A DNA stretch of 64,000 bases, taken from NCBI RefSeq assembly GCF_004137245.1, contig NZ_SDWS01000005.1, positions 1 through 64,000 of the forward strand. Direction: 5' to 3'. The notes beneath the pieces were generated by a model. It was not told the DNA's origin. It made no database searches and saw only the letters and a list, made by a program, of their open reading frames with translations. This document shows, in pieces, positions 5,060 through 17,600 of this stretch; the first letter of the stretch is position 1, and each line of letters begins with the position of its first letter. The DNA is from Nocardioides glacieisoli (lineage in GTDB: Bacteria; Actinomycetota; Actinomycetes; Propionibacteriales; Nocardioidaceae). Both the position numbers and the translations under genes were made by a program.

Positions 5060-5888
<829 letters not shown>

Positions 5889-5889
<1 letters not shown>

Positions 5890-7106
5890 TAGCCGATCTC
5901 CTCGATGTCGCTGATCCCGAAGGCGCGGTCGTAGTCAGCCAGATCCCGGACCAGGTCGTCGCCGTCGCCCGTGCGGACGCGGGGCTGTTGGAACTGCCTG
6001 CGCAAACGGGCGGCTACTTCGACATGCGCCGGGTCGGTGATCGTCATGCCTCGTGCCCACACGCGCTGGCGTTCGGCGATCACGCGACCTTCCAGCCGGA
6101 TCCGGACACGGTCGAGGTCAGCGGCGACGTCGACCATTCGACCGATCATGTTGGGGTCCACGGAGTAGTCGTTGGTGTCGAGGCGCACGTAGTAGTCGCG
6201 ACCGAGCCGGATCTTGTTGCGCCACCCCAGGTGCAGTGGGATCGGTGGCAGCGGCAACATCGCCGCCCGATCGGCATCGATCAGATCCACTGGCGCAGCC
6301 TTGATCGTGCGGACCACCCTGGCGTTCGCCTTGCCGAGCCAGTCGGTGAACTGGTCGTTGAAGTCGGCCGGTGAGGTGAACGTTCGACCGGGCATGAACG
6401 AGGTCTCGAACCAGCCGTTGCGACGTTCGACCACACCCTTGGACTCAGGGTCCCGCGGCGGCAACAGCACCAGCTTGGTGGCCAGAGTGCCCATGAACGC
6501 GGCCACACCCTCGGCGCGACGAGTGCCACGCCCGATGCCGGGCTCGTTGTCCCAGATCAGCCGCCGCGGGACTCGGCCGAGCTGCTGGATCAGCTCCCAC
6601 GAGCCGAGCAGCAGGTCCTCGGTCTTCCGCGTCGGGATCATCCGTCCTGTCACGAACCGTGAGTGCGCCGCGGTGATCACCAGCACCGGCAACAACTTGG
6701 CGGTGCCGTCCTCGAGCAGGATCCTCCGCGGCGGGAACCACAGATCGCACTGCGCCGCGTCACCAACGGTCCAAGTGATCCGATCCGCGGGATCGACCGG
6801 CCGGTGCTCGGGACGCAGCCGACGCACGTTGTCGCTGAACCAACGGATCGAGCCAGTCCAGCCCACCCGTTCGGCCAGCACCGTGGCAGGCATGTCCGGA
6901 ACCTCGGCCAGCAACGCCCGCACGTGCGGCTCGAACTCCGTGAACGACGTCGGCCCCCGCGTCCGCACATAGCGCGGCGGCGCGTCCGAGTTCACCGCCT
7001 TGATGACCGTGGTCCTAGAGATCCCCAGCCGCTCAGCGATGCGCGACTTCGGCACGCCCTCCGCAGCCAGCCTCCTGATCAGCGCCCAGTCCTCCAAAGT
7101 GATCAC
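5889..7106 (-). CDS. istA: IS21-family transposase IstA
   Basis: A 405-residue DDE transposase. An N-terminal helix-turn-helix (residues about 5-40, including KSRIAERLGISRTTVIKAV) should bind the element ends. The integrase core follows with candidate catalytic residues D121 (QCDLWF), D186 (WDNEP) and E227 (KGVVERRN). The C-terminal beta-rich domain (RDYYVRLDTNDYSVDP) is typical of IstA. The stop overlaps the istB start by one base, the usual istA-istB order. The reading frame is intact although its partner istB is frameshifted. It differs clearly from the second IstA at 16326-17600. Confidence 0.9.
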
Positions 7107-7325: not shown

Positions 7326-8708
7326 ATGACACCGCCGCCGACCGAGACCGACCTCTCGGGCTCTCTCGCCCATACCGACGCACCGCCCGAGATGGGCGCG
7401 GTCTTCTGGCCGGTCGGTACCGGCGACTCCACCACCCTCGTCGTCTCCGACGAGGTAGTCGTTCAGATCGATCTGCACGACATGGCGCTCGCCGACGACG
7501 AGACGAAGCCTGAGGTTCCGGTCGTCGACCTGCTGGCGGAGACGCTCCCGCAGGTCGACGGCGAGCCGTACCTGGCCGTCTTTGCGCTGACGCACGCCGA
7601 CAAGGACCACTGCCTCGGGTTCGCCGACCTCCTCGACAAGGTGCGCATCGGTGAGCTGTGGGCCACGCCCCGGCTCTGGCGCGAGTACCAGATGGAGAAC
7701 GCGCCGGACCTGTGCGCGGACGCGAAGGTCTTCCAGGAGGAGGCCGAGCGCCGGGTCGCCGCGGTCAAGGCTGCCATCGCGAAGGGCGTGGAGCCGGCAA
7801 GCGGCGACCGCATCGTCGTCATCGGCTACGACACCAACCACGACCAGCACGCGTACGCCGAGCTGCCGGCGGAGTACAAGTCCGGTCCGGGCAAGTCGAT
7901 CACGGTCCTCGACGGACGCGATTGCAGCGACCAATTCGAGGCCTTCATCCACGCGCCCTTCGCCGACGACTGCGCGAACGCTCGCAACGACACTTCGTTG
8001 GCCATGCACATGACGCTCCTCGATGCCTCGGGTGTCGGCGGCCGAGTGCTGATGTTCGGCGACCTCGCCCACGAGACGATCATGAAGATCGTCGACTACA
8101 GCGAGAAGAAGGTTCGCGAGAAGTACCTCACCTACGACGTCCTGCTCGCCCCGCACCACTGCTCCAAGAAAGTCATGTACCTGCCGGACGCCGAGGGCAA
8201 CGACGTCCTTCAGAAGGACGTGATCGAAGCCTTCGAGCGCCATGCGGCCACCGGCGCCGTCGTGGTGTGCAGCAGTGGCCCGATCCCGGCTCAGGACAAG
8301 CCCCGGGACAACCCGCCGCATCTGAAGGCATACAACCGGTACAGCGAGGTGGTCGGCGAGGTCATCGTGACGATGTCGTGGCCCAGCGGTGACGCCGTCG
8401 CCCCTGTCGTCTTTGCCGTCGATAAGAACGGCGCCCGGATCATCCGCGAGGCAGATGTAGAGGCGGCCGCCGAAGTGATCCTGTCGAAGTCGCTCGAGCA
8501 CGCCGCGCGTTCCCTGCCGATGGGCCGCCGCCTAGCGGCCGTCGCGGCGGCGGCCACCCTCGCCTCCGTTGGTGAGAGCTCAGGCGCCGCGCTAGGTTCT
8601 GGCGGTGGGTCCGACGGTGGGCGAAGCAGTCTGGAGCGGTTGCGCGCTGCCATTACTTCGGACCGGGGCGGCGACGCTGCCCCTCCGCCGGTCGGATTCG
8701 GCGGTTGA
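7326..8708 (+). CDS. Metallo-beta-lactamase-fold protein with C-terminal Gly-Gly tail
   Basis: A 460-residue protein starting at ATG with AGGAGAG seven bases upstream. The longer open frame that begins inside the IS element is not the gene. The fold is recognised by THADKDHC (residues 89-96; H90, D92, D94, H95), the metal-binding loop of ComEC/Rec2-type metallo-beta-lactamase-fold hydrolases, then a GDLAH motif (D246, H249) and APHHCS (H277, H278). These are the residues expected to hold a binuclear metal centre, so hydrolase activity is plausible; the substrate is unknown. After about residue 395 comes an alanine/glycine/serine-rich tail that looks disordered and ends in VGFGG. It is the first gene of an operon: the E2-E1-JAB gene starts six bases after its stop. 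The context suggests that the tail is the substrate of that enzyme, which is an inference. Confidence 0.8.
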   Translation: MTPPPTETDLSGSLAHTDAPPEMGAVFWPVGTGDSTTLVVSDEVVVQIDLHDMALADDETKPEVPVVDLLAETLPQVDGEPYLAVFALTHADKDHCLGFADLLDKVRIGELWATPRLWREYQMENAPDLCADAKVFQEEAERRVAAVKAAIAKGVEPASGDRIVVIGYDTNHDQHAYAELPAEYKSGPGKSITVLDGRDCSDQFEAFIHAPFADDCANARNDTSLAMHMTLLDASGVGGRVLMFGDLAHETIMKIVDYSEKKVREKYLTYDVLLAPHHCSKKVMYLPDAEGNDVLQKDVIEAFERHAATGAVVVCSSGPIPAQDKPRDNPPHLKAYNRYSEVVGEVIVTMSWPSGDAVAPVVFAVDKNGARIIREADVEAAAEVILSKSLEHAARSLPMGRRLAAVAAAATLASVGESSGAALGSGGGSDGGRSSLERLRAAITSDRGGDAAPPPVGFGG

Positions 8709-8714
8709 TCGCTC

Positions 8715-11579
8715 GTGGCTGATCCGGTCGACCACGAGCGTGCCCACAGTTCCCGCCCCGCTGAGCCACTCGGCTCGCGTGCACCAGCACCGACCCTCGG
8801 GCCAGAACTGGCCGCTCTCCAGCTCGCGGAGCTCGCTGCGATCTCGGCCGGCGGGCTCGAGATCATCACGGAGTCGACCGAGGCGCGATCTGCGTTCGTA
8901 TTGTCGTTGGCCACCGACGGGATCGCTGCTGGCCCTGGCGTGCGACTTCGTTCTCGCGAGCGGTTCCGGGTCTACGTCGGCGACAAGTTCCCGTTCACAC
9001 CCCCCAAGGTATTTGCAGACCATCAGCGATGGGCGGGGAGCCCGCACGTGCAGTGGGGCACCTTCTTGTGCCTATACGCAGCGGAGTCGGTCGAGTGGAA
9101 CTCTGCGGACGGGATGCGGGGCTTCGTCGAGCGGCTCCTGGCCTGGCTAGAAAATGCCGCTGCCGGCACGCTCGATCCCGACGACCGCCCGCTGCATCCG
9201 CCCTCGACCGCGACCAGCCCGGCCGCCGGTCGCCTCGTAGTGCGACCGGACCTTGCCGACCGCGTTCCGTGGGCCAAGGAGTCGTCGGGGCCCGCGGGGA
9301 CTCCGAGCGCCACGCAGGCGACGGCTGAGGTCGCCTATGGATGGTGCGTCCATGACGGCAGCCGTTTCGAGATACTTGAATGGCTCACGCTCGTGGAGAC
9401 CTACGACAAGGTCCTCCAGGACGGTTTGATTCCGCTCGATGAGCGCGGTCGACGGTTCATGGTCATACCGGTCGTCATGATGGACACCCACCTCGGGTGG
9501 GAGTACCCCAAACACGCCGCCGACCTGGCTCACAAGCTCGCGGAGGCGGGTTATGCGCCCCGCGACCTGCTCGATGTCGTCGTCTTCGCAAGTCGGATGA
9601 ACCGGCTGATGCGGATGATCGAGCGCGACGCCGCGCTCGACACGGACGCTGACTCTGACGCCGGCACAGGTGGCGACACCGAGTTCGACGTCGACAGCGA
9701 CCCCTTGATCCTGGGCCTGGCGACGCCCGGCAGACGCGTCGAGTCCGATCGCCTCGCCCACATCGTGGCCTGGAGGTTCACCGGCATCGGAGTCGATGCC
9801 GTTCGGTTCCTGCGCCAGATCGGCAGGCTCAAGGAGCCGCCTCCGGAGCTGGTCGAGAAGGTCCATGCGTTCGCCCAGGATTGGATCGATACGGCCAAGG
9901 TCGCGTGGATCCGTGTGCACGAGATGAGGCCCGAAGTCACGCGCCGACGTGATGAGGGATCACCAGGCCGATGGCTCGCCGGCAAAAACGTCGTGCTCCT
10001 TGGGGCGGGGGCCATCGGTGCCGTTGTAGCGGAGCAATGCGTCCGTCTGGGATGCCAGAACCTCGTCATCGTCGACGACGGAGTCGTCGGGCCAGGGATC
10101 CTGGTCCGTCAGCCCTACTACGACCGAGACGTGGGGCATGCGAAGGCCGAAGCCCTGGCGTCCCGGCTCAATACGATCACTCACGAGGACGTGGTCACCG
10201 CGGTCACTGACGACTGTCGTGACCTGTTCATCGATGGTCACAGCGGCGGCGGGAACCCGTTCTGGCTCTCGATGGACTCGTGCGACCTCGTCATCGATGC
10301 GACTGCCGACGCCGGCACGCGAGCGGTCCTTGAGCGACTGCGCGTGTCACAGCGCTCGAGCTGGCCGCCGGTGATCACGATGCTCGTGGGGCATCAGGCA
10401 ACAAGGGGGTTGGCCATTGTCGCGGGAGCCGGCGCGTCATCGAGCAGCCACGAGCTCTTGCGGCGTGTGGCGATCAGAGGACGGGACGTGGCGCGACCGT
10501 CGTGGGGCGACATCGTTGACGACTTCTTTCCCGATCCGCCGCGAACCGAGATGTTCTTTCCGGAGCCTGGCTGTTCGGAGCCGACGTTCACGGGCTCGGC
10601 CAGCGACGTCATGGCCCTGGCTTCGACGATGTTCGGGTACGCCATAGCTGTGCTCGACGAGATCGACCAAGCGGCACGTACCCCTCATCGCGAGAGCGAC
10701 GATGAGGAACAATTGATGGTCAGTCAACCGCCGCGCATGCGTGCCGCCGGCTTCAGAATTGCTCGTCCGGGGTCTTCTCTCGCCGGGCGAGCCGCCGTCG
10801 AGGAGATGAGCTGGGACGACGACCTAGTCCAGCTGGACCCGACGAGCGGCTTGGAAGTCAGAATCAGCGCAGAAGCACTCCTTGAGATGAGGAGTGAAGT
10901 GCGACGCGGCGCGCGCACCCGCGGTCCTGGGGTCGAGACCGGCGGGCTGATGCTCGGCTTCTTCGACGAGGCCTCCCGCAGTGTCATCGTCGATGTTGCC
11001 ACCGGGCCAGCGCCCGACAGCCTGCTGTCCGAGGGCTACTTCTTCCACGGCGTGAGCGGCACGCAGGACTTCATCGACCGCGTTTCCCAGCGCACCGGCA
11101 AGCTGACCCGGTTCGTGGGCATCTGGCACTGCCACCCCTACGGGCGCGCATGGCCGAGCGCCACTGACGAAGCAGGCATCACCGTCCTGACCTCGTTCAC
11201 GACGGGTGGACGTCGTGCTTTGATGATCATTCTCGGCGGCTCCTCGCATCGGTGGGAGTCATGGCGCGACGGACCGGATCAAGGTCTGGCACTGGGCGGC
11301 CATGAAACGTTGCCTCGCTTGTTCGCCCGCGTAGTTGAGAGACCAGCCGACAACCCGAGTAGTGCCGCGCAGCCGCCCAACACATCCGAAGGTCATCTTC
11401 GTGGCGCAGCAGACGCAGACCCCTACGCTGTGCTGACGGCCTACCAACGGATGCTTCAGATGCCACCAGTTGGCGTCTACTACGCGGGCGGCTACTCCGA
11501 CGAGTCCTTCAAGGTGGACCTCGTCGGCCCCAGCACCAGCTCCGGCAGTAGCGACGAGGCTCACGACATTGAAGAATGA
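8715..11579 (+). CDS. E2-E1-JAB fusion: ubiquitin-like conjugation and deconjugation enzyme
   Basis: A 954-residue single chain with three domains. Residues about 30-155 are E2-like (UBC fold): KFPFTPPKVF, then HVQWGTFLCLY with candidate catalytic C119. Residues about 200-410 form a helical linker with an acidic insert (310-330). Residues about 415-655 are an E1/ThiF domain with nucleotide-binding GAGAIG (430-435) and a candidate E1 cysteine C620 in EPGCSEPTF. Residues about 715-840 are a JAB/JAMM peptidase: E741 plus H805, H807, S815 and D818, an exact HxHx7SxxD pattern. In type II CBASS, Cap2 is an E2-E1 enzyme that attaches the CD-NTase C-terminus to targets, and the separate JAB protease Cap3 removes it. 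Here both activities are fused. The GTG start lies six bases after the upstream stop, so translation is probably coupled. No ribosome binding site is obvious. Confidence 0.9.
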   Translation: MADPVDHERAHSSRPAEPLGSRAPAPTLGPELAALQLAELAAISAGGLEIITESTEARSAFVLSLATDGIAAGPGVRLRSRERFRVYVGDKFPFTPPKVFADHQRWAGSPHVQWGTFLCLYAAESVEWNSADGMRGFVERLLAWLENAAAGTLDPDDRPLHPPSTATSPAAGRLVVRPDLADRVPWAKESSGPAGTPSATQATAEVAYGWCVHDGSRFEILEWLTLVETYDKVLQDGLIPLDERGRRFMVIPVVMMDTHLGWEYPKHAADLAHKLAEAGYAPRDLLDVVVFASRMNRLMRMIERDAALDTDADSDAGTGGDTEFDVDSDPLILGLATPGRRVESDRLAHIVAWRFTGIGVDAVRFLRQIGRLKEPPPELVEKVHAFAQDWIDTAKVAWIRVHEMRPEVTRRRDEGSPGRWLAGKNVVLLGAGAIGAVVAEQCVRLGCQNLVIVDDGVVGPGILVRQPYYDRDVGHAKAEALASRLNTITHEDVVTAVTDDCRDLFIDGHSGGGNPFWLSMDSCDLVIDATADAGTRAVLERLRVSQRSSWPPVITMLVGHQATRGLAIVAGAGASSSSHELLRRVAIRGRDVARPSWGDIVDDFFPDPPRTEMFFPEPGCSEPTFTGSASDVMALASTMFGYAIAVLDEIDQAARTPHRESDDEEQLMVSQPPRMRAAGFRIARPGSSLAGRAAVEEMSWDDDLVQLDPTSGLEVRISAEALLEMRSEVRRGARTRGPGVETGGLMLGFFDEASRSVIVDVATGPAPDSLLSEGYFFHGVSGTQDFIDRVSQRTGKLTRFVGIWHCHPYGRAWPSATDEAGITVLTSFTTGGRRALMIILGGSSHRWESWRDGPDQGLALGGHETLPRLFARVVERPADNPSSAAQPPNTSEGHLRGAADADPYAVLTAYQRMLQMPPVGVYYAGGYSDESFKVDLVGPSTSSGSSDEAHDIEE

Positions 11580-11594: not shown

Positions 11595-12689
11595 ATGAGT
11601 ACAGAGAAACCACGAATCGGGCTCGCCTTGTCCGGCGGCGGGTTCCGTGCCACCGCCTTCGGGCTCGGAAGCATGCGCGCCCTGCACGACCGTGGCCTGC
11701 TCAACGAGATCAGCGTCGTGTCCGGCATCAGCGGTGGCAGCCTCCTCGCGGCCATGTGGGCCTACGGTCCGCCGTCGTTCGAAGAGTTCGACGCGTCAGT
11801 CACGGAACTGCTGCGGTCCGGCCTGCAGATGGAGCTGGCCCGACGTGTGTTCGCTCCCAGCTCCGGGGCGAAGAAAGTCGGATCCTCGATGCGTCGTCGG
11901 CTCACGAAGAAGGGACGCTCACAAGGTCAGTTGCGCAGCCGCACCGACGCCTTGGCAGAGGCATTTGCCTCTAGACCCTTCGGTCAACGGCTTCTCGAGC
12001 AAGTAACCCATCCTGACCTGGCGACGGTGATCTCGGCTACTGACCTGACGACCACCAACGCAGTGCGGTTCGGCAGCGTCGTGAGCAGCTGCTCGCGTTA
12101 CGGCGACATCCTGAATCCGGTCCGGGTAGCAGAAGCCGTTGCTGCCTCGGCAGCCTTCCCGATTCTGCTGCCGGCCCTGGATCGCGTCTACAACTTCCGG
12201 GCACGAGACGAGTCCGTCGTTCGTGAGCGCTTGGCGCTCACCGATGGGGGCGTCTACGACAACCTCGGCCTGTCGGTGCTGCTGCCAGGACGAGTGGGGC
12301 GCTTCACCTCGCACGTGTACGACCTTGACTACGTGATCGCCATCGACGCCGGTCGAGGACGAACAAGCAAGGTGACGGGCAACACGACTCCGTTCCGCCT
12401 GGCGCGCAGCTTCGACATCACGTACGCCAAGACCCAGGACGGTGGCCGCGCCCAGTTGAATCATGCAGCTCGACATGGACAGTTGCGGGGATTTGTGCAC
12501 ACCTACTTGGCGACGCAGGACCGCAATCTGCCGCGGCCCGTGGCCGATCTGGTCGGTCGAGACGAGGTCGTGGGCTATTCGACGAATTTCGCGGCCATGC
12601 ACGTCGATGACTTACGGCGACTCACGACTCGCGGCGAGCAGCTCACTCGCAGCCTTATGAGCTACTACTGCCCAGAGTTAGGCAACTGA
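11595..12689 (+). CDS. Patatin-like phospholipase, probable effector
   Basis: A 364-residue protein starting at ATG with AGAGGT seven bases upstream, 15 bases after the E2-E1-JAB stop. It begins with the patatin oxyanion loop SGGGFRATAFGLG (residues about 13-25), followed by the nucleophile elbow GISGGS (GxSxG) near residue 47 and the catalytic DGG near residue 217 (LALTDGGVYDNLG). The serine-aspartate dyad is therefore complete. Patatin-like enzymes hydrolyse acyl chains from membrane phospholipids. In CBASS the effector CapV is of this family and kills the infected cell by degrading its membrane. No signal peptide or membrane helix is visible, so it should be cytoplasmic. Here it would be the effector of the operon; how it is activated without a visible cyclic-nucleotide synthase is unknown. 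Confidence 0.85.
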   Translation: MSTEKPRIGLALSGGGFRATAFGLGSMRALHDRGLLNEISVVSGISGGSLLAAMWAYGPPSFEEFDASVTELLRSGLQMELARRVFAPSSGAKKVGSSMRRRLTKKGRSQGQLRSRTDALAEAFASRPFGQRLLEQVTHPDLATVISATDLTTTNAVRFGSVVSSCSRYGDILNPVRVAEAVAASAAFPILLPALDRVYNFRARDESVVRERLALTDGGVYDNLGLSVLLPGRVGRFTSHVYDLDYVIAIDAGRGRTSKVTGNTTPFRLARSFDITYAKTQDGGRAQLNHAARHGQLRGFVHTYLATQDRNLPRPVADLVGRDEVVGYSTNFAAMHVDDLRRLTTRGEQLTRSLMSYYCPELGN

Positions 12690-12852: not shown

Positions 12853-14607
12853 TCACGAAGTCGGGTGCGAGATCGAGGCTGTCCCCCCAGTCTCCGACTC
12901 CTCAAGCCAGGAGAAGGCTGAGGAGACCGCTCGCTCTTCGGTGTCGAGGATGCGGAAGGCTGTGCGCACGAGTGAGTAGAACTGGTTCACCCACGCGGTC
13001 GCGAGCTGGACGTTGCCACCCAGGCTGAGCGAGAGGCTCGGTATGAGGTGTAGGCCGTGAAGGACGTTGAGGCAACGTTCCATCGCGTGGGTCTCGATAG
13101 ACCACCACTCGGAATGCGCCACGCCGCTGGCTTGTGAGTAGGCCTGTCGGTAAAAGTCCAGGAGACCTGTTTCGTCGGCCATGCTGCGAATGGACTTGCC
13201 TTGCGCGAATGTGTCTCGGGTGTCGACGATCCTGTAATCGATGATGCCGTGGTTGTGGCTGAGTCGTTCGAACTCATCCATGGCTTCTTGATATCCAGTA
13301 GTGCGTGCTTCTGCCGGCACCTCATCCGCGATGCGGGCGTAGAGCTTCGCCTTGCCTGCGCCGTACTCCTGGAACTCGCGGTAGATGGCTGGATCCTGCT
13401 GCGCCATCCAGTGCAGGTAGATCTTCGTTTCCACCAGCATGCGCACGATGTGGGCGCCGTGCTCCATGCACCACAGATCGGGCGCTGTAAGCACCGCGAT
13501 GAGATCTCGCCCGGCCCGCGACACGAGGCCTGAAACGACCTCCTGACGCTCCTTGTCGTGCAACCGGGCGGGCGCCGTCTCCAGAGCTCCGACAAAGCTG
13601 GACAACAGGTCCATGGTGAGTTGTCGTAGGTGCGCACCATCGGGCGGAACGGGGGTTGCGCCGGCGCCGACGTCGTTCGTCACCGCCGGTCGGTCGTCCC
13701 GCGCGTCCGGCTCCGAGCCGGGGTCGGGGCTTGCTTGCGGCGGTGCAGTGGTCACCGCGGCTTGGGACGCGGCCACGTGGGTCGCGTTCCACGCCGAGCC
13801 ATCACTTGCTGGCGTCGGGGTGGTCTCGCTCTCGCCGTCCCTCTTGCGAACGCACTGGGACGTCATCGAGTTAGCTCCCCAGAACACACGCGCCCACCTG
13901 ATGGACTTGTCGAAGTAGTTCGGGTCCTCGACCGTCAGCATCCCCTTGTGTGCTCCCCACTGCGAGCGAATGACCGTGTCCGCCTGGGACCTGGTACCTG
14001 CTGCGTCGGGGTAGGTCTTCAGGAGGTCGATGGTCTGCTGGTCTGATGAGAATGTGCCGGCCTGAACCGTGCTCCAGGTGCGGAAGCACTTCATCAGCGC
14101 CTCGCGGTGGCCGTCGCTGAGCGCTTCGAGAAGCGCCCGGCGCACGAGATCGATGTCGGCCTGCTCGGGCACGTGCACCTCGACATCCGCAGTCAGCCAT
14201 GGGACCGGCATGTACGGGTAGGAGGTGAGGGCACTGCGCACACCGGCAGAGAGCAGACTGTGATCATCTGCTTGCTCGGACACCACTCCTGCTGCGCTCG
14301 GAATCTTGATAGCGAGGCGCGCGAGGTTGGTCAGTCGACCGTCAAGCGACTCGGCCACGAACGCGGTCTCATCGTGCCCGGACAGTGCGTCCTGAACTGC
14401 CTTCTGCCATGCGACAAAGTTGCGGATCGCGCCGTTGCCTTGCTCGGCGAGCACGAGGGCCGGCCACAGCAAGTCGGGGAGGTCGTCCTTGAACCAGTCT
14501 CCGATGACGAGGACGCCGGTCGCCGCGAGTGGCGGCGTGAAGACCCGGCGCCGGTGAACATGTCCGGCCAGAGGCCCGTTGTGCTGGTTCGGCTGCGGCA
14601 TCTGCAT
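12853..14607 (-). CDS. DUF5677-like protein, 584 aa
   Basis: It points towards the patatin gene, so the two are convergent with about 160 bases between stops. Residues about 1-280 match nothing I recognise and contain a tryptophan-rich start (GDWFKDDLPDLLWPALVLAEQ is split over this stretch). A proline/alanine/threonine-rich low-complexity linker spans about 265-330. The C-terminal 230 residues are helical, with RMLVETKIYLHWM and a SQASGVAHSEWWS segment, like proteins annotated as DUF5677. No catalytic motif can be claimed. It sits between the conjugation operon and the second IS21 copy, so it may be a further part of the defence cassette or an independent cargo gene. The ATG at 14601 is an alternative start. 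Confidence 0.5.
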   Translation of the reverse strand: MQMPQPNQHNGPLAGHVHRRRVFTPPLAATGVLVIGDWFKDDLPDLLWPALVLAEQGNGAIRNFVAWQKAVQDALSGHDETAFVAESLDGRLTNLARLAIKIPSAAGVVSEQADDHSLLSAGVRSALTSYPYMPVPWLTADVEVHVPEQADIDLVRRALLEALSDGHREALMKCFRTWSTVQAGTFSSDQQTIDLLKTYPDAAGTRSQADTVIRSQWGAHKGMLTVEDPNYFDKSIRWARVFWGANSMTSQCVRKRDGESETTPTPASDGSAWNATHVAASQAAVTTAPPQASPDPGSEPDARDDRPAVTNDVGAGATPVPPDGAHLRQLTMDLLSSFVGALETAPARLHDKERQEVVSGLVSRAGRDLIAVLTAPDLWCMEHGAHIVRMLVETKIYLHWMAQQDPAIYREFQEYGAGKAKLYARIADEVPAEARTTGYQEAMDEFERLSHNHGIIDYRIVDTRDTFAQGKSIRSMADETGLLDFYRQAYSQASGVAHSEWWSIETHAMERCLNVLHGLHLIPSLSLSLGGNVQLATAWVNQFYSLVRTAFRILDTEERAVSSAFSWLEESETGGTASISHPTS

Positions 14608-15513: not shown

Positions 15514-16326
15514 CTAGTTCTCTTCGTTGACGGCCGCGGGGACGCGGCCGAGTTCTCGGTTCTTCAGCCGGTAGGAGGCGCCCTTCAATGCGATGACTTC
15601 GGCGTGGTGGACGAGCCGGTCGATCATCGCGGCGGCGACGGTGTCGTCGCCGAAGACCTCGCCCCAGCGGGCGAAGTTCTTGTTGGACGTGACGATCAGG
15701 CTGGCGCGTTCGTAGCGCGATGAGACGAGCTGGAAGAACAGGTTGGCGGCCTCGGGCTCGAAGGGGATGTAGCCGACCTCGTCGATGACCAACACGGGAT
15801 AGCGGACGAGTCGGCGGAGCTCGTCTTGCAGCCTGCCGGCGTGGTGGGCTTCGGCGAGCCGGTCGACCCACTGGCTGGCGGTGGCGAACTGGACCCGGTG
15901 CCCGGCCTGGCAGGCCCGGATCGCCAGCCCGGTGGCCAGGTGGGTCTTGCCGGTGCCGGGCGGGCCGAGCAGGACGACGTTCTCCTTGGCGGCGACGAAG
16001 TCCAGCGTGCCCAGGTGCGCGATCGTCTCCCGTTTCAGGCCCCGGGCGTGGTCGTAGTCGAAGTCCTCGAGGGACTTGCGGGCCGGGAACCGCGCGGCGC
16101 GGATCCGGCCCTCGCCACCGTGGGACTCGCGGGCGGCGACCTCGCGTTGCAGGCAGGCGGCGAGGAACTCCTCGTGGGTCCAGGACTCCTCGCGGGCCCG
16201 TTCGGCCAGCCGGGCGACCGACTCGCGCAGGGTAGGTGCCTTCAACGCCCGGGTCAGGAACTCCAGCTCGCTGGTGACATCACGACCGGTGCTCCCGGCT
16301 GTCTTCGCGGTGGTGCGGGTGGCCAT
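15514..16326 (-). CDS. istB: IstB, IS21 helper ATPase
   Basis: About 270 residues, the normal length for the family. An N-terminal helical domain (residues about 20-75) precedes the AAA+ domain with Walker [10 protein letters not shown] near 122-130, Walker B-like VLVIDEVGYIPFE, and the [19 protein letters not shown] sensor region. It assembles on DNA and activates the IstA transposase. The ATG at 16326 overlaps the TGA of istA by one base; a GTG three bases upstream (16329) is an alternative start, also within the overlap. The intact frame serves as reference for the broken copy at 5060-5889. Confidence 0.93.
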   Translation of the reverse strand: MATRTTAKTAGSTGRDVTSELEFLTRALKAPTLRESVARLAERAREESWTHEEFLAACLQREVAARESHGGEGRIRAARFPARKSLEDFDYDHARGLKRETIAHLGTLDFVAAKENVVLLGPPGTGKTHLATGLAIRACQAGHRVQFATASQWVDRLAEAHHAGRLQDELRRLVRYPVLVIDEVGYIPFEPEAANLFFQLVSSRYERASLIVTSNKNFARWGEVFGDDTVAAAMIDRLVHHAEVIALKGASYRLKNRELGRVPAAVNEEN

Positions 16327-17600
16327 CACGACACCTCCTCATCAACGAGCTCGGCGACCAGCTCGTCGACTAGGCCGAGGACCTGGTCGTAGGTGGTCAG
16401 CGACCGGATCTCGACCTCCTCACCGGTCACGACGTCGGCGACCGGCCGCAGCAGGTCGGCACGACCGTGACGCAGCTGCTTGGCGGCGACGGTGTGCTCG
16501 AAGTCGGTGATCGTTTGGTGCTGTGCCCAGACCCGGGCGTGGTCGGCGACGATCGCGCCCTCACAGGTCACCCAGACCCGGTCCAGGTCGGCGTGGACCT
16601 CGATCCGCCGTCCGACCACGGCCGGGTGGACTGAGTAGTCGTTCGAGTCGACGCGGACGTAGTGGTCGCGCGGCAGCCGCAGGCTCTTGCGCCAGCCGAC
16701 CTCGGGCGCGACCGGCGGCAACGGCATCATGGCGGCCTTGTCCGCTGCGATCCGGTCCGCCGGTGAACAGCCCAGCACCCGCATCCGGCGCGTGTTGGCC
16801 TTGGCCACCCACTCGCCCAGCTGGGTGTTGAAGTCCTCGGGTGAGGTGAATGTCCGTCCGGGCAGGAAGGACCGCTCGAGGTAGTCGTGGAACCGCTCCA
16901 GCATTCCCTTTGCCTCGGGGTCAGCCGGCTTGCAGATGTACACGCTGGTACCCAGCACGCCGCGGAACGCCTGGCACTCGGCGGTCAGCTCGGGTCGTCG
17001 GGCGCGCCAGCGGCCGACCGCGCCCTCACCGTCCCACACCAGCGTGCGCGGCACCGCGCCGAGCTGTTGGATCAGATGCCACCAACCCGCGAAGAGGTCC
17101 TCGGACTCGCGACGAGGAATCAGCACCGCGCCCGTCCACCGGGAGTAGCCCGAGCACATCGTCATCACCGGCAGCCGCTTCGCGGTCCTGATCTGGCCGT
17201 AGCCGACCGGCAGCTCGATGGGCGGGAACCAGAAGTCGAACTGGGCCAGCTCGCCTGCCTCATAGGTCGTGCGCGACGCCGGGTCCGGTGGCAAGTACAC
17301 CGGCCGCAGCTCGCTCACCCGCGAACGCAGCGTCCGGATCGAGTGCTCCCAGCCGATCCGCTCGGCGACAACCGTGGCCGGCATCGTGGGCGTGACCCGC
17401 AACAACTCGCGAATCCGCGGCTCGACCTCGTCGACCAACGACCCTCGCGTCGGCCGCTCGTAGCGCGGCGGCCCCTCATCCCGCAGCGCCTTGCGCACCG
17501 TGTTCTTCGAGATCCCCATCGACCTGGCGATCACCTTGATCGGCACTCCCTCCGCACGGTGCAACCGGCGGATCTCAGCCCAGTCCTCCACTGACAACAC
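16326..17600 (-). CDS. istA: IS21-family transposase IstA
   Basis: A 424-residue DDE transposase with an N-terminal helix-turn-helix (residues about 10-40, KVIARSMGISKNTVRKAL) and a DDE core with candidates D122 (QFDFWF), D190 (VWDGEG) and E235 (KGMLERFHDY). The C-terminal domain contains RDHYVRVDSNDYSVHP. It precedes and overlaps istB. Only about 90 bases separate its start from the right end of the element, where the terminal repeats probably also hold the promoter. Confidence 0.93.
   Translation of the reverse strand: MLSVEDWAEIRRLHRAEGVPIKVIARSMGISKNTVRKALRDEGPPRYERPTRGSLVDEVEPRIRELLRVTPTMPATVVAERIGWEHSIRTLRSRVSELRPVYLPPDPASRTTYEAGELAQFDFWFPPIELPVGYGQIRTAKRLPVMTMCSGYSRWTGAVLIPRRESEDLFAGWWHLIQQLGAVPRTLVWDGEGAVGRWRARRPELTAECQAFRGVLGTSVYICKPADPEAKGMLERFHDYLERSFLPGRTFTSPEDFNTQLGEWVAKANTRRMRVLGCSPADRIAADKAAMMPLPPVAPEVGWRKSLRLPRDHYVRVDSNDYSVHPAVVGRRIEVHADLDRVWVTCEGAIVADHARVWAQHQTITDFEHTVAAKQLRHGRADLLRPVADVVTGEEVEIRSLTTYDQVLGLVDELVAELVDEEVS

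What the first reader, a model, noticed from the sequence alone, without database searches (positions are those of the whole stretch)
8520..8708. MBL-fold protein ends in a flexible tail with terminal Gly-Gly
The last 65 residues after the folded domain are rich in Ala, Gly and Ser and end in VGFGG. A terminal Gly-Gly on a flexible tail is how ubiquitin-like proteins and the C-terminus of Cap2 substrates present themselves to E1 enzymes. The gene is directly upstream of an E1-containing protein. I propose that the whole MBL protein is activated at its C-terminus and attached to a target, replacing the CD-NTase of CBASS.
Basis: partly seen in the sequence, partly recalled or inferred. Interest (0 to 1): 0.8.

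Follow-up and report, generated by a model that had tools for sequence, protein, structure and literature searches.

The report
Defence enzyme with ubiquitin-like C-terminal tail
A bacterial metallo-hydrolase encoded beside a ubiquitin-type enzyme keeps a glycine at the end of a floppy tail, so the whole hydrolase is probably attached to other molecules as ubiquitin is, within an anti-phage system that is already catalogued.

Summary
The tail is real: window 7326-8708 (+) encodes a 460-residue MBL protein whose fold ends near residue 373 and whose flexible tail ends VGFGG. The terminal Gly-Gly is incidental (2 of 101 distinct homologues). What is conserved is one glycine just before the stop, here Gly459 of Val-Gly-Phe-Gly, followed by 0-4 variable residues (one case of 6 in a second sample). 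100 of 101 homologues have it. On a tree the extension length changes at least 26 times and the glycine is lost once. Thirteen related MBLs without E2/E1 downstream lack the motif. An E1 follows in 99 of 101; the other two contigs end. The operon is Iyer's type 6a and NCBIfam's 'anti-phage 6A-MBL system', so it is known. Best reading: the E2-E1-JAB protein activates the MBL protein at this glycine and conjugates it, as Cap2 does with cGAS in type II CBASS; its JAB domain probably trims the extension first. Substrate status is well supported by comparison (about 0.88); trimming, target and MBL chemistry are inferred. I found no paper on this tail, but the work behind the name 6A-MBL was not available.

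The parts
7326..8708 (+). 6A-MBL enzyme: MBL-fold hydrolase (ComEC-like), 460 aa, proposed ubiquitin-like modifier
   Evidence: NCBIfam NF058524.1 269.5 bits, cut-off 220; fold nearest ComEC MBL domain 9ic4, Z 24.0, rmsd 3.0, 255 residues
8499..8708 (+). flexible C-terminal tail (about residues 392-460)
   Evidence: segments 392-407, 411-433, 458-460 under pLDDT 50; weakly predicted helix 435-446
8694..8702 (+). conserved Gly457-Phe458-Gly459, proposed E1 recognition and conjugation end
   Evidence: tail classes in 101 distinct homologues; Gly459 at least 90% in A5
8703..8705 (+). Gly460, the variable trailing residue (0-4 residues in the main set, up to 6 in a second sample)
8715..11579 (+). 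E2-E1-JAB fusion (cap2_3), 954 aa; invariant Cys119, Cys620, GxGxxG 430-435, Asp454, Arg465, Lys477, Glu741, His805, His807, Ser815, Asp818
   Evidence: Pfam Prok-E2_A, ThiF, Prok-JAB; these residues in 90 of 90 aligned rows, 86 of them with distinct MBLs; NF058523.1 295.3 bits, cut-off 320
11595..12689 (+). patatin-like phospholipase, proposed effector (GGGFR, GISGG, DGG motifs)
   Evidence: Pfam PF01734 1.4e-20; motifs

Best explanation
The MBL protein is the substrate, that is the 'modifier', of the E2-E1-JAB protein encoded next to it. Proposed steps: (1) the JAB domain trims the few residues after the conserved glycine when they are present (inferred); (2) the E1 domain adenylates the freed glycine carboxylate (Gly459 here, possibly Gly460 directly) and passes it to its cysteine (Cys620) and then the E2 cysteine (Cys119), as Cap2 does with the CD-NTase C-terminus (inferred by homology); (3) the folded MBL enzyme is conjugated through its flexible tail to a target, protein or lipid, which activates or places it, and JAB can reverse this (inferred); (4) the patatin phospholipase, or in deep relatives perhaps a small membrane protein, carries out the cell-damaging response (inferred from the operon). 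Shown here: the conserved displaced glycine, its absence from E1-less relatives, the intact catalytic residues, the operon structure and Cap2 as the nearest solved relative.
For: 100 of 101 distinct MBLs keep a glycine within 5 residues of the stop: 73 GFG, 2 GYG, 2 GHG, 8 [TD]YG, 6 other HG, 7 RAG, 1 RFG, 1 QG. On a tree of 97 built from the fold alone, extension length changes at least 26 times, extension sequence 60 times, presence of the glycine once. 14 of 100 end exactly at the glycine, so the extension is dispensable. Second sample: all 7 members over the NCBIfam cut-off in 398 genomes of one phylum have [FYHA]G near the stop, 6 of 7 within 4 residues and L139 within 6, with E1 downstream in 7 of 7 (one of the seven is the genome of L060). 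Control: 0 of 13 Avs1a-like MBLs without E2/E1 downstream have [FYHAQ]G within 4 or 6 residues of the stop. E2, E1 and JAB catalytic residues are invariant in 90 of 90 rows. Nearest solved relatives: Cap2-CdnD02, and Cap2 bound to the CdnD02 C-terminus. Precedent: CD-NTase C-terminal Gly/Ala is conserved only in operons with Cap2 and Cap3 and is required for conjugation (PMC10097602 passages). JAB enzymes process BilA (PMC11354881 passages) and an archaeal ubiquitin precursor (PMC6043591, start of abstract in a listing). No MBL among the 101 is fused to the next gene although 55 of 99 overlap it by 4 nt, whereas patatin is fused to E2-E1-JAB in 26, as expected if the MBL needs a free C-terminus.
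Against: No biochemistry. 84 of 101 lack a terminal glycine, so activation requires a trimming step that is not shown here; in CBASS the glycine is the last residue. L093 (tail PYARR, JAB on a separate ORF) lacks the glycine; L067 has RFG+QWR. L090 keeps GFG plus 2 residues although no JAB is found in the 6.9 kb that follow; its partner gene looks truncated. The residue before the glycine varies among deep clades (F, Y, H, A, Q). The broad pattern [FYHA]G plus 0-4 is loose: 98 of 890 ORF ends and 22% of shuffled tails match it by chance, so the deep HG and RAG clades rest on recurrence. In the control set only L144 is over the Avs1a cut-off, and L145 and L129 do have some glycine within 5 residues of the stop, without F/Y/H/A/Q before it. 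The Foldseek match to Cap2 is at domain level (whole-chain TM 0.28, rmsd 29.6 for 7to3; E1 domain TM by target 0.78-0.81 for 7tsq). No complex of tail and E1 could be modelled.
Confidence: 0.74

Rival explanations
1. The tail is a docking peptide only: the RG-P-VGFG motif binds the E2-E1-JAB or patatin protein non-covalently to hold the complex together, and the true E1 substrate is another protein.
For: The conserved stretch reaches back about 13 residues (R-13, G-12, P-7, V-3 in 53, 69, 67 and 59 of 77), more than conjugation strictly needs; most members carry trailing residues (86 of 100).
Against: No other candidate substrate gene in the window operon: 6 nt and 15 nt separate the three genes. 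The one residue kept in every clade is the glycine nearest the stop, and 14 members end there. Cap2 holds its substrate by the same kind of tail (PDB titles; PMC12355090 passages).
Confidence: 0.1
2. The E1 acts on whatever residue ends the tail; the extension is part of the mature modifier and JAB only removes conjugates.
For: In CBASS the glycine is already the last residue and Cap3 is known as an isopeptidase (PMC10097602 passages). In the window Gly460 itself could be used. L090 keeps its extension without a detectable JAB.
Against: The trailing residues take many identities (Arg, Ala, Lys, Glu, Cys, Trp and others) and change at least 60 times on the tree, whereas in CBASS changing the terminal Gly to Ser, Val, Arg or Trp abolished conjugation.
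Confidence: 0.15
3. The glycines are a by-product of the DNA: the MBL 3' end overlaps the ribosome-binding site and start of the next gene.
For: 58 of 103 loci overlap by 4 nt.
Against: All four Gly codons and both Phe codons are used; Shine-Dalgarno-like 4-mers lie at -16 to -4 in only 2 of 76; the distance from the motif to the next start varies, mostly between 1 and 12 nt.
Confidence: 0.01

Closest known systems
6A-MBL anti-phage system (NCBIfam NF058524.1, NF058523.1; operon type 6a of Iyer et al. 2006, PMC1779556; [quoted passage not shown]
   Same: MBL enzyme plus E2-E1-JAB triple-domain protein; 73 of 73 MBLs and 47 of 47 partner proteins scanned match the two models at E <= 0.01
   Different: The model and the passages I could see do not describe the tail: the NCBIfam match ends at residue 369. 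The window partner protein scores 25 bits below its curated cut-off.
Type II CBASS (Cap2, Cap3, CD-NTase, CapV)
   Same: E2-E1 enzyme, JAB peptidase, phospholipase effector, C-terminal glycine tail of a protein without the ubiquitin fold
   Different: No CD-NTase; an MBL hydrolase takes its place; JAB fused to E2-E1, patatin sometimes fused as well; glycine mostly followed by a short extension
Bil and Bub systems
   Same: E1, E2 and JAB; BilA is processed by BilC to expose its glycine (PMC11354881 passages)
   Different: Bil uses a ubiquitin-like protein, BilA (same passages); that Bub does too is recalled. Here Pfam found no ubiquitin-like domain in the three operon proteins.
Avs1a MBL of AVAST type 1; ComEC MBL domain; Pce phosphorylcholine esterase
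   Same: Same MBL branch by profile and fold
   Different: 13 Avs1a-like proteins examined, 1 of them over the Avs1a cut-off, have no E2/E1 downstream and no [FYHAQ]G tail end

Membership tests
6A-MBL system | MBL enzyme over the curated NF058524.1 cut-off | tested here: met
   269.5 bits against 220
6A-MBL system | cap2_3 protein over the curated NF058523.1 cut-off | tested here: inconclusive
   295.3 bits against 320, E 9.7e-88 over model positions 4-665 of 665: whole-length match but below the cut-off
6A-MBL system | E2, E1 and JAB in one protein next to the MBL gene (Iyer 2006 row 6a) | tested here: met
   Pfam PF14457, PF00899, PF14464 in that order
6A-MBL system | protects against phage | not testable with these tools
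   called anti-phage by NCBIfam only
Type II CBASS | CD-NTase gene in the operon | tested here: not met
   MBL, E2-E1-JAB and patatin only
Type II CBASS | Cap2-type E2-E1 and Cap3-type JAB | tested here: met
   Cap2 is the best solved relative; 43 of 47 match the Cap3 model NF050170 at E <= 0.01
Ubiquitin-like proteins | beta-grasp fold | tested here: not met
   MBL fold, ComEC domain 9ic4 Z 24.0, rmsd 3.0 over 255 residues
Ubiquitin-like modifiers (works like) | glycine at or near the C-terminus on a flexible tail | tested here: met
Ubiquitin-like modifiers (works like) | extension removed by a peptidase and glycine joined to a target | not testable with these tools
   needs biochemistry
MBL hydrolases (ComEC type) | metal site HxDxDH, Asp, His | tested here: met
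   H90, D92, D94, H95, D246, H277 invariant in 73 rows; ligand roles recalled from the family

The most novel reading that the evidence does not exclude
A folded metallo-hydrolase, neither of the ubiquitin fold nor a cGAS-like cyclase, serves as the protein modifier of a bacterial immune system. It is made as a precursor whose short C-terminal extension is cut by the JAB domain of the same protein that then activates it. It would be a second, independent class of modifier without the ubiquitin fold, with a tail code that differs by clade.
Probability: 0.55. Interest if true: 0.75.

Novelty: new member of a known kind. Interest (0 to 1): 0.55.

Why it matters
A 2025 review says Cap2 was then the only known ubiquitin-type transferase system that activates a protein without the beta-grasp fold (PMC12355090 passages). 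If the MBL tail is a substrate, a tail-borne glycine rather than a fold defines what such enzymes accept, and other enzymes could be recruited as modifiers. The tail rule also tells experimenters which residue to mutate and which remnant to look for in mass spectrometry, and E1-less Avs1a-type MBLs are natural controls.

Tried and rejected
Terminal Gly-Gly as the signal: rejected, 2 of 101. Ribosome-binding site or gene overlap as the cause of the glycines: rejected. Selection of near copies only: answered by a second sample and a tree. A search for 6A-MBL proteins without an E1 as controls failed: 99 of 101 have E1 downstream and the other two (L084, L091) are cut by the contig end, so Avs1a relatives were used. 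Weak hits in the window's phylum (L099-L102) were too partial to serve.

Loss of JAB against loss of the extension could not be tested: JAB is found in 95 of 101; five others are cut by contig ends and L090 (partner truncated) is a single case, which keeps its extension. No record of the phage collection matched; 2 viral contigs did. Literature: ten full-text searches found no description of the MBL tail; '6A-MBL' gave no paper; three papers on Bil, Bub and bacterial ubiquitin-like proteins were not held. The absence is limited to these searches, of which I read listings and passages, not whole papers.

Rows dropped before counts: L089 (MBL frameshifted) and L107 (MBL cut by IS5) excluded; L022, L034, L039 dropped as identical over the last 300 residues, leaving 101 of 106. 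L108, whose MBL is annotated as two ORFs, was kept for its tail. The tree uses 97 of 101 (L041, L048, L066 and L108 left out as short or incomplete). Codon test on 77 proteins (76 with a next start); there L050 and L064 were read at their GHG, not GFG. Catalytic residues were counted in 90 of 103 partner proteins, near copies included (86 with distinct MBLs); the other 13 were cut by contig ends, split or broken. One search counted L050 and L064 as GHG plus 2; one search reads them as GFG plus 4 and its numbers are used. One search's counts of changes are superseded. In one search the loci L105-L119 were not in the patatin search; one search adds L105, L107 and L117, and one search confirms 77 of 101 in all.

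Full report
Observation. The ORF 7326-8708 (+) encodes a 460-residue protein that ends VGFGG; residues 399-460 hold 14 Gly, 13 Ala and 8 Ser. AlphaFold2 with 51 rows gives a confident fold to about residue 373, a helix to 392 and a mostly disordered tail (mean pLDDT 84.1). Gene order is MBL, E2-E1-JAB (8715-11579), patatin (11595-12689), with gaps of 6 and 15 nt.

What it is. Pfam gives nothing for the window MBL at E <= 0.01 but NCBIfam names it 6A-MBL_enzyme of an anti-phage 6A-MBL system (269.5 bits, cut-off 220); the partner matches 6A-MBL_cap2_3 over its whole length but scores 295.3 against a cut-off of 320. All 73 MBLs of alignment A5 and all 47 partner proteins of A6 match these models at E <= 0.01. 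Iyer et al. 2006 had described the operon as row 6a, with 'Pnap' in its list, which I take to be Polaromonas naphthalenivorans, the species of L011 (PMC1779556 passages). [quoted passage not shown] So the operon is known.

Relatives. A genome scan found 283 relatives of which the best 80 were kept; 2 viral contigs and 23 annotated plasmid loci were added, and with the window these make 106 loci. Of the 101 distinct, usable MBLs, E2 is found downstream in 100, E1 in 99 and JAB in 95; the misses are at contig ends except JAB of L090. Of 103 loci with a partner ORF, it starts between 20 nt before and 34 nt after the MBL stop in 101, with a 4-nt overlap in 58. In L107 the two genes are separated by an IS5 insertion. 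Patatin is found in 77 of 101: a separate downstream gene in 51, fused to the C-terminus of E2-E1-JAB in 26; of the other 24, 7 are limited by contig ends. Among nine third genes examined in deep relatives, seven encode proteins with 2-4 hydrophobic, membrane-like segments (one of them DUF6338) and two match MBL families.

The tail. 100 of the 101 have a glycine within five residues of the stop, preceded by Phe, Tyr, His, Ala or Gln: 73 GFG, 2 GYG, 2 GHG, 8 [TD]YG, 6 other HG, 7 RAG, 1 RFG, 1 QG; the exception is L093. It is followed by 0, 1, 2, 3 or 4 residues in 14, 23, 39, 8 and 16 cases. Only 2 end in GG. In the 77 with G[FYH]G, R-13, G-12, P-7 and V-3 are also common (53, 69, 67, 59 of 77); over the tree set the distance from the fold to the glycine runs from 19 to 86 residues. 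On a tree of 97 built from the fold alone, the extension length needs at least 26 changes, its sequence 60, and presence of the glycine one. That is the pattern expected of a mature end followed by a disposable extension.

Controls. G[FYH]G within four residues of the stop: 77 of 101 MBLs, 0 of 95 partner proteins, 5 of 890 other mechanical ORFs, 0.9% of shuffled tails; the looser [FYHA]G pattern: 99 of 101, 4 of 95, 98 of 890 and 22%. Codon use is mixed and Shine-Dalgarno-like words are rare at the site (2 of 76), so the next gene's start signal does not explain it. A fresh draw of 398 genomes of another phylum gave 8 matches, 7 of them over the curated cut-off and complete; all 7 have [FYHA]G near the stop, 6 within 4 residues and L139 with 6 after it, and E1 follows in all 7 (E2 seen in 6; one is L060 again). 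Thirteen related Avs1a-like MBLs without E2 or E1 in the sequence downstream have no such end (0 of 13); two of them, L145 and L129, do have a glycine within five residues of the stop in another setting. Only L144 is over the Avs1a cut-off; twelve had 0.8-1.5 kb downstream to look at and L147 only 78 bp.

Machinery. In 90 of 90 aligned partner rows (86 with distinct MBLs) the putative E2 Cys119, E1 Cys620, GxGxxG, Asp454, Arg465, Lys477 and JAB Glu741, His805, His807, Ser815, Asp818 are invariant; their roles are recalled from the families. By sequence profile and by fold the nearest solved relative is Cap2 with its CD-NTase substrate (7to3; also 7tsq and 7tsx, Cap2 with the CdnD02 C-terminus). 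The fold match is good for single domains only, and the model has mean pLDDT 77.1. The MBL fold is nearest to the ComEC domain (9ic4, Z 24.0, rmsd 3.0, 255 residues) and the Pce phosphorylcholine esterase (1wra, Z 20.9, rmsd 4.0, 271 residues), with HxDxDH, D246 and H277 invariant in 73 rows. A phosphodiesterase-type activity is therefore likely but untested.

Mechanism. In type II CBASS the CD-NTase C-terminal Gly or Ala is conserved only in operons with Cap2 and Cap3, and replacing the Gly by Ser, Val, Arg or Trp abolishes conjugation (PMC10097602 passages). By analogy the MBL glycine is the conjugating end. Because most members carry extra residues that such an E1 should not accept, trimming by the fused JAB domain is the simplest completion; JAB enzymes do this for BilA (PMC11354881 passages). 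L090, without a detectable JAB, keeps its extension; it may be a recently broken operon, but it does not help the trimming idea. Inferred, not shown: trimming, thioester transfer, target, effect on MBL activity, and the link to patatin.

Context. WYL genes lie upstream on the opposite strand in L012, L013, L105, L106, L108, L113 and L119, and HTH plus ImmA/IrrE genes in L112 and L118 (9 of 23 annotated plasmid loci). These resemble CapW and CapH+CapP, regulators of immune operons (PMC13373217 passages; PMC9122588 passages) by annotation and position only. The family is rare: in 396 genomes of the window's phylum 7 matched the alignment at E <= 1e-5, 3 of them strongly, the window's own genome included.

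Verdict. The system is catalogued; the displaced-glycine rule and the E1-less control are what this work adds, within the limits of the papers I could search.

Noticed in passing
window 5060-7106 (-) and 15514-17600 (-): The operon is bracketed by two IS21-type istB/istA pairs in the same orientation, 73% and 64% identical in DNA over two aligned parts, as in a composite element (the second pair was identified by similarity to the first, not by a family search).
   Followed up: partly
window 12853-14607 (-): DUF5677 protein with a PADLOC DitA match (E 2.9e-17), another defence-type gene beside the operon.
   Followed up: no
L044, L045, L059, L094 and 22 more: Patatin fused to the C-terminus of E2-E1-JAB, a four-domain protein, while no MBL of the set is fused to it.
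   Followed up: partly
L108, L110, L112, L114, L115, L116, L118 downstream gene: In these deep relatives the third gene encodes a small protein with 2-4 hydrophobic membrane-like segments instead of patatin, as if the effector had been exchanged.
   Followed up: partly
L012 (Klebsiella plasmid), L119 (E. coli plasmid): The MBL is intact with a PRAG+4 tail while the partner gene is interrupted by IS3; MBL matches occur in 246 plasmid records, E2-E1-JAB matches in 31 at the same E-value limit, though divergence may explain part of it.
   Followed up: partly
L090: Partner gene truncated with no JAB in the following 6.9 kb, MBL tail still GFG plus 2.
   Followed up: partly
L093: Most divergent MBL (branch length 2), tail without the glycine, JAB on a separate ORF: possibly a decaying operon.
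   Followed up: partly
L038, L039: Two MBL copies identical over the last 300 residues near both ends of the linear Streptomyces scabiei chromosome.
   Followed up: no
L003 (own genome, contig C2): A second ThiF-family match in a 631-residue open frame elsewhere in the genome; function not examined.
   Followed up: no
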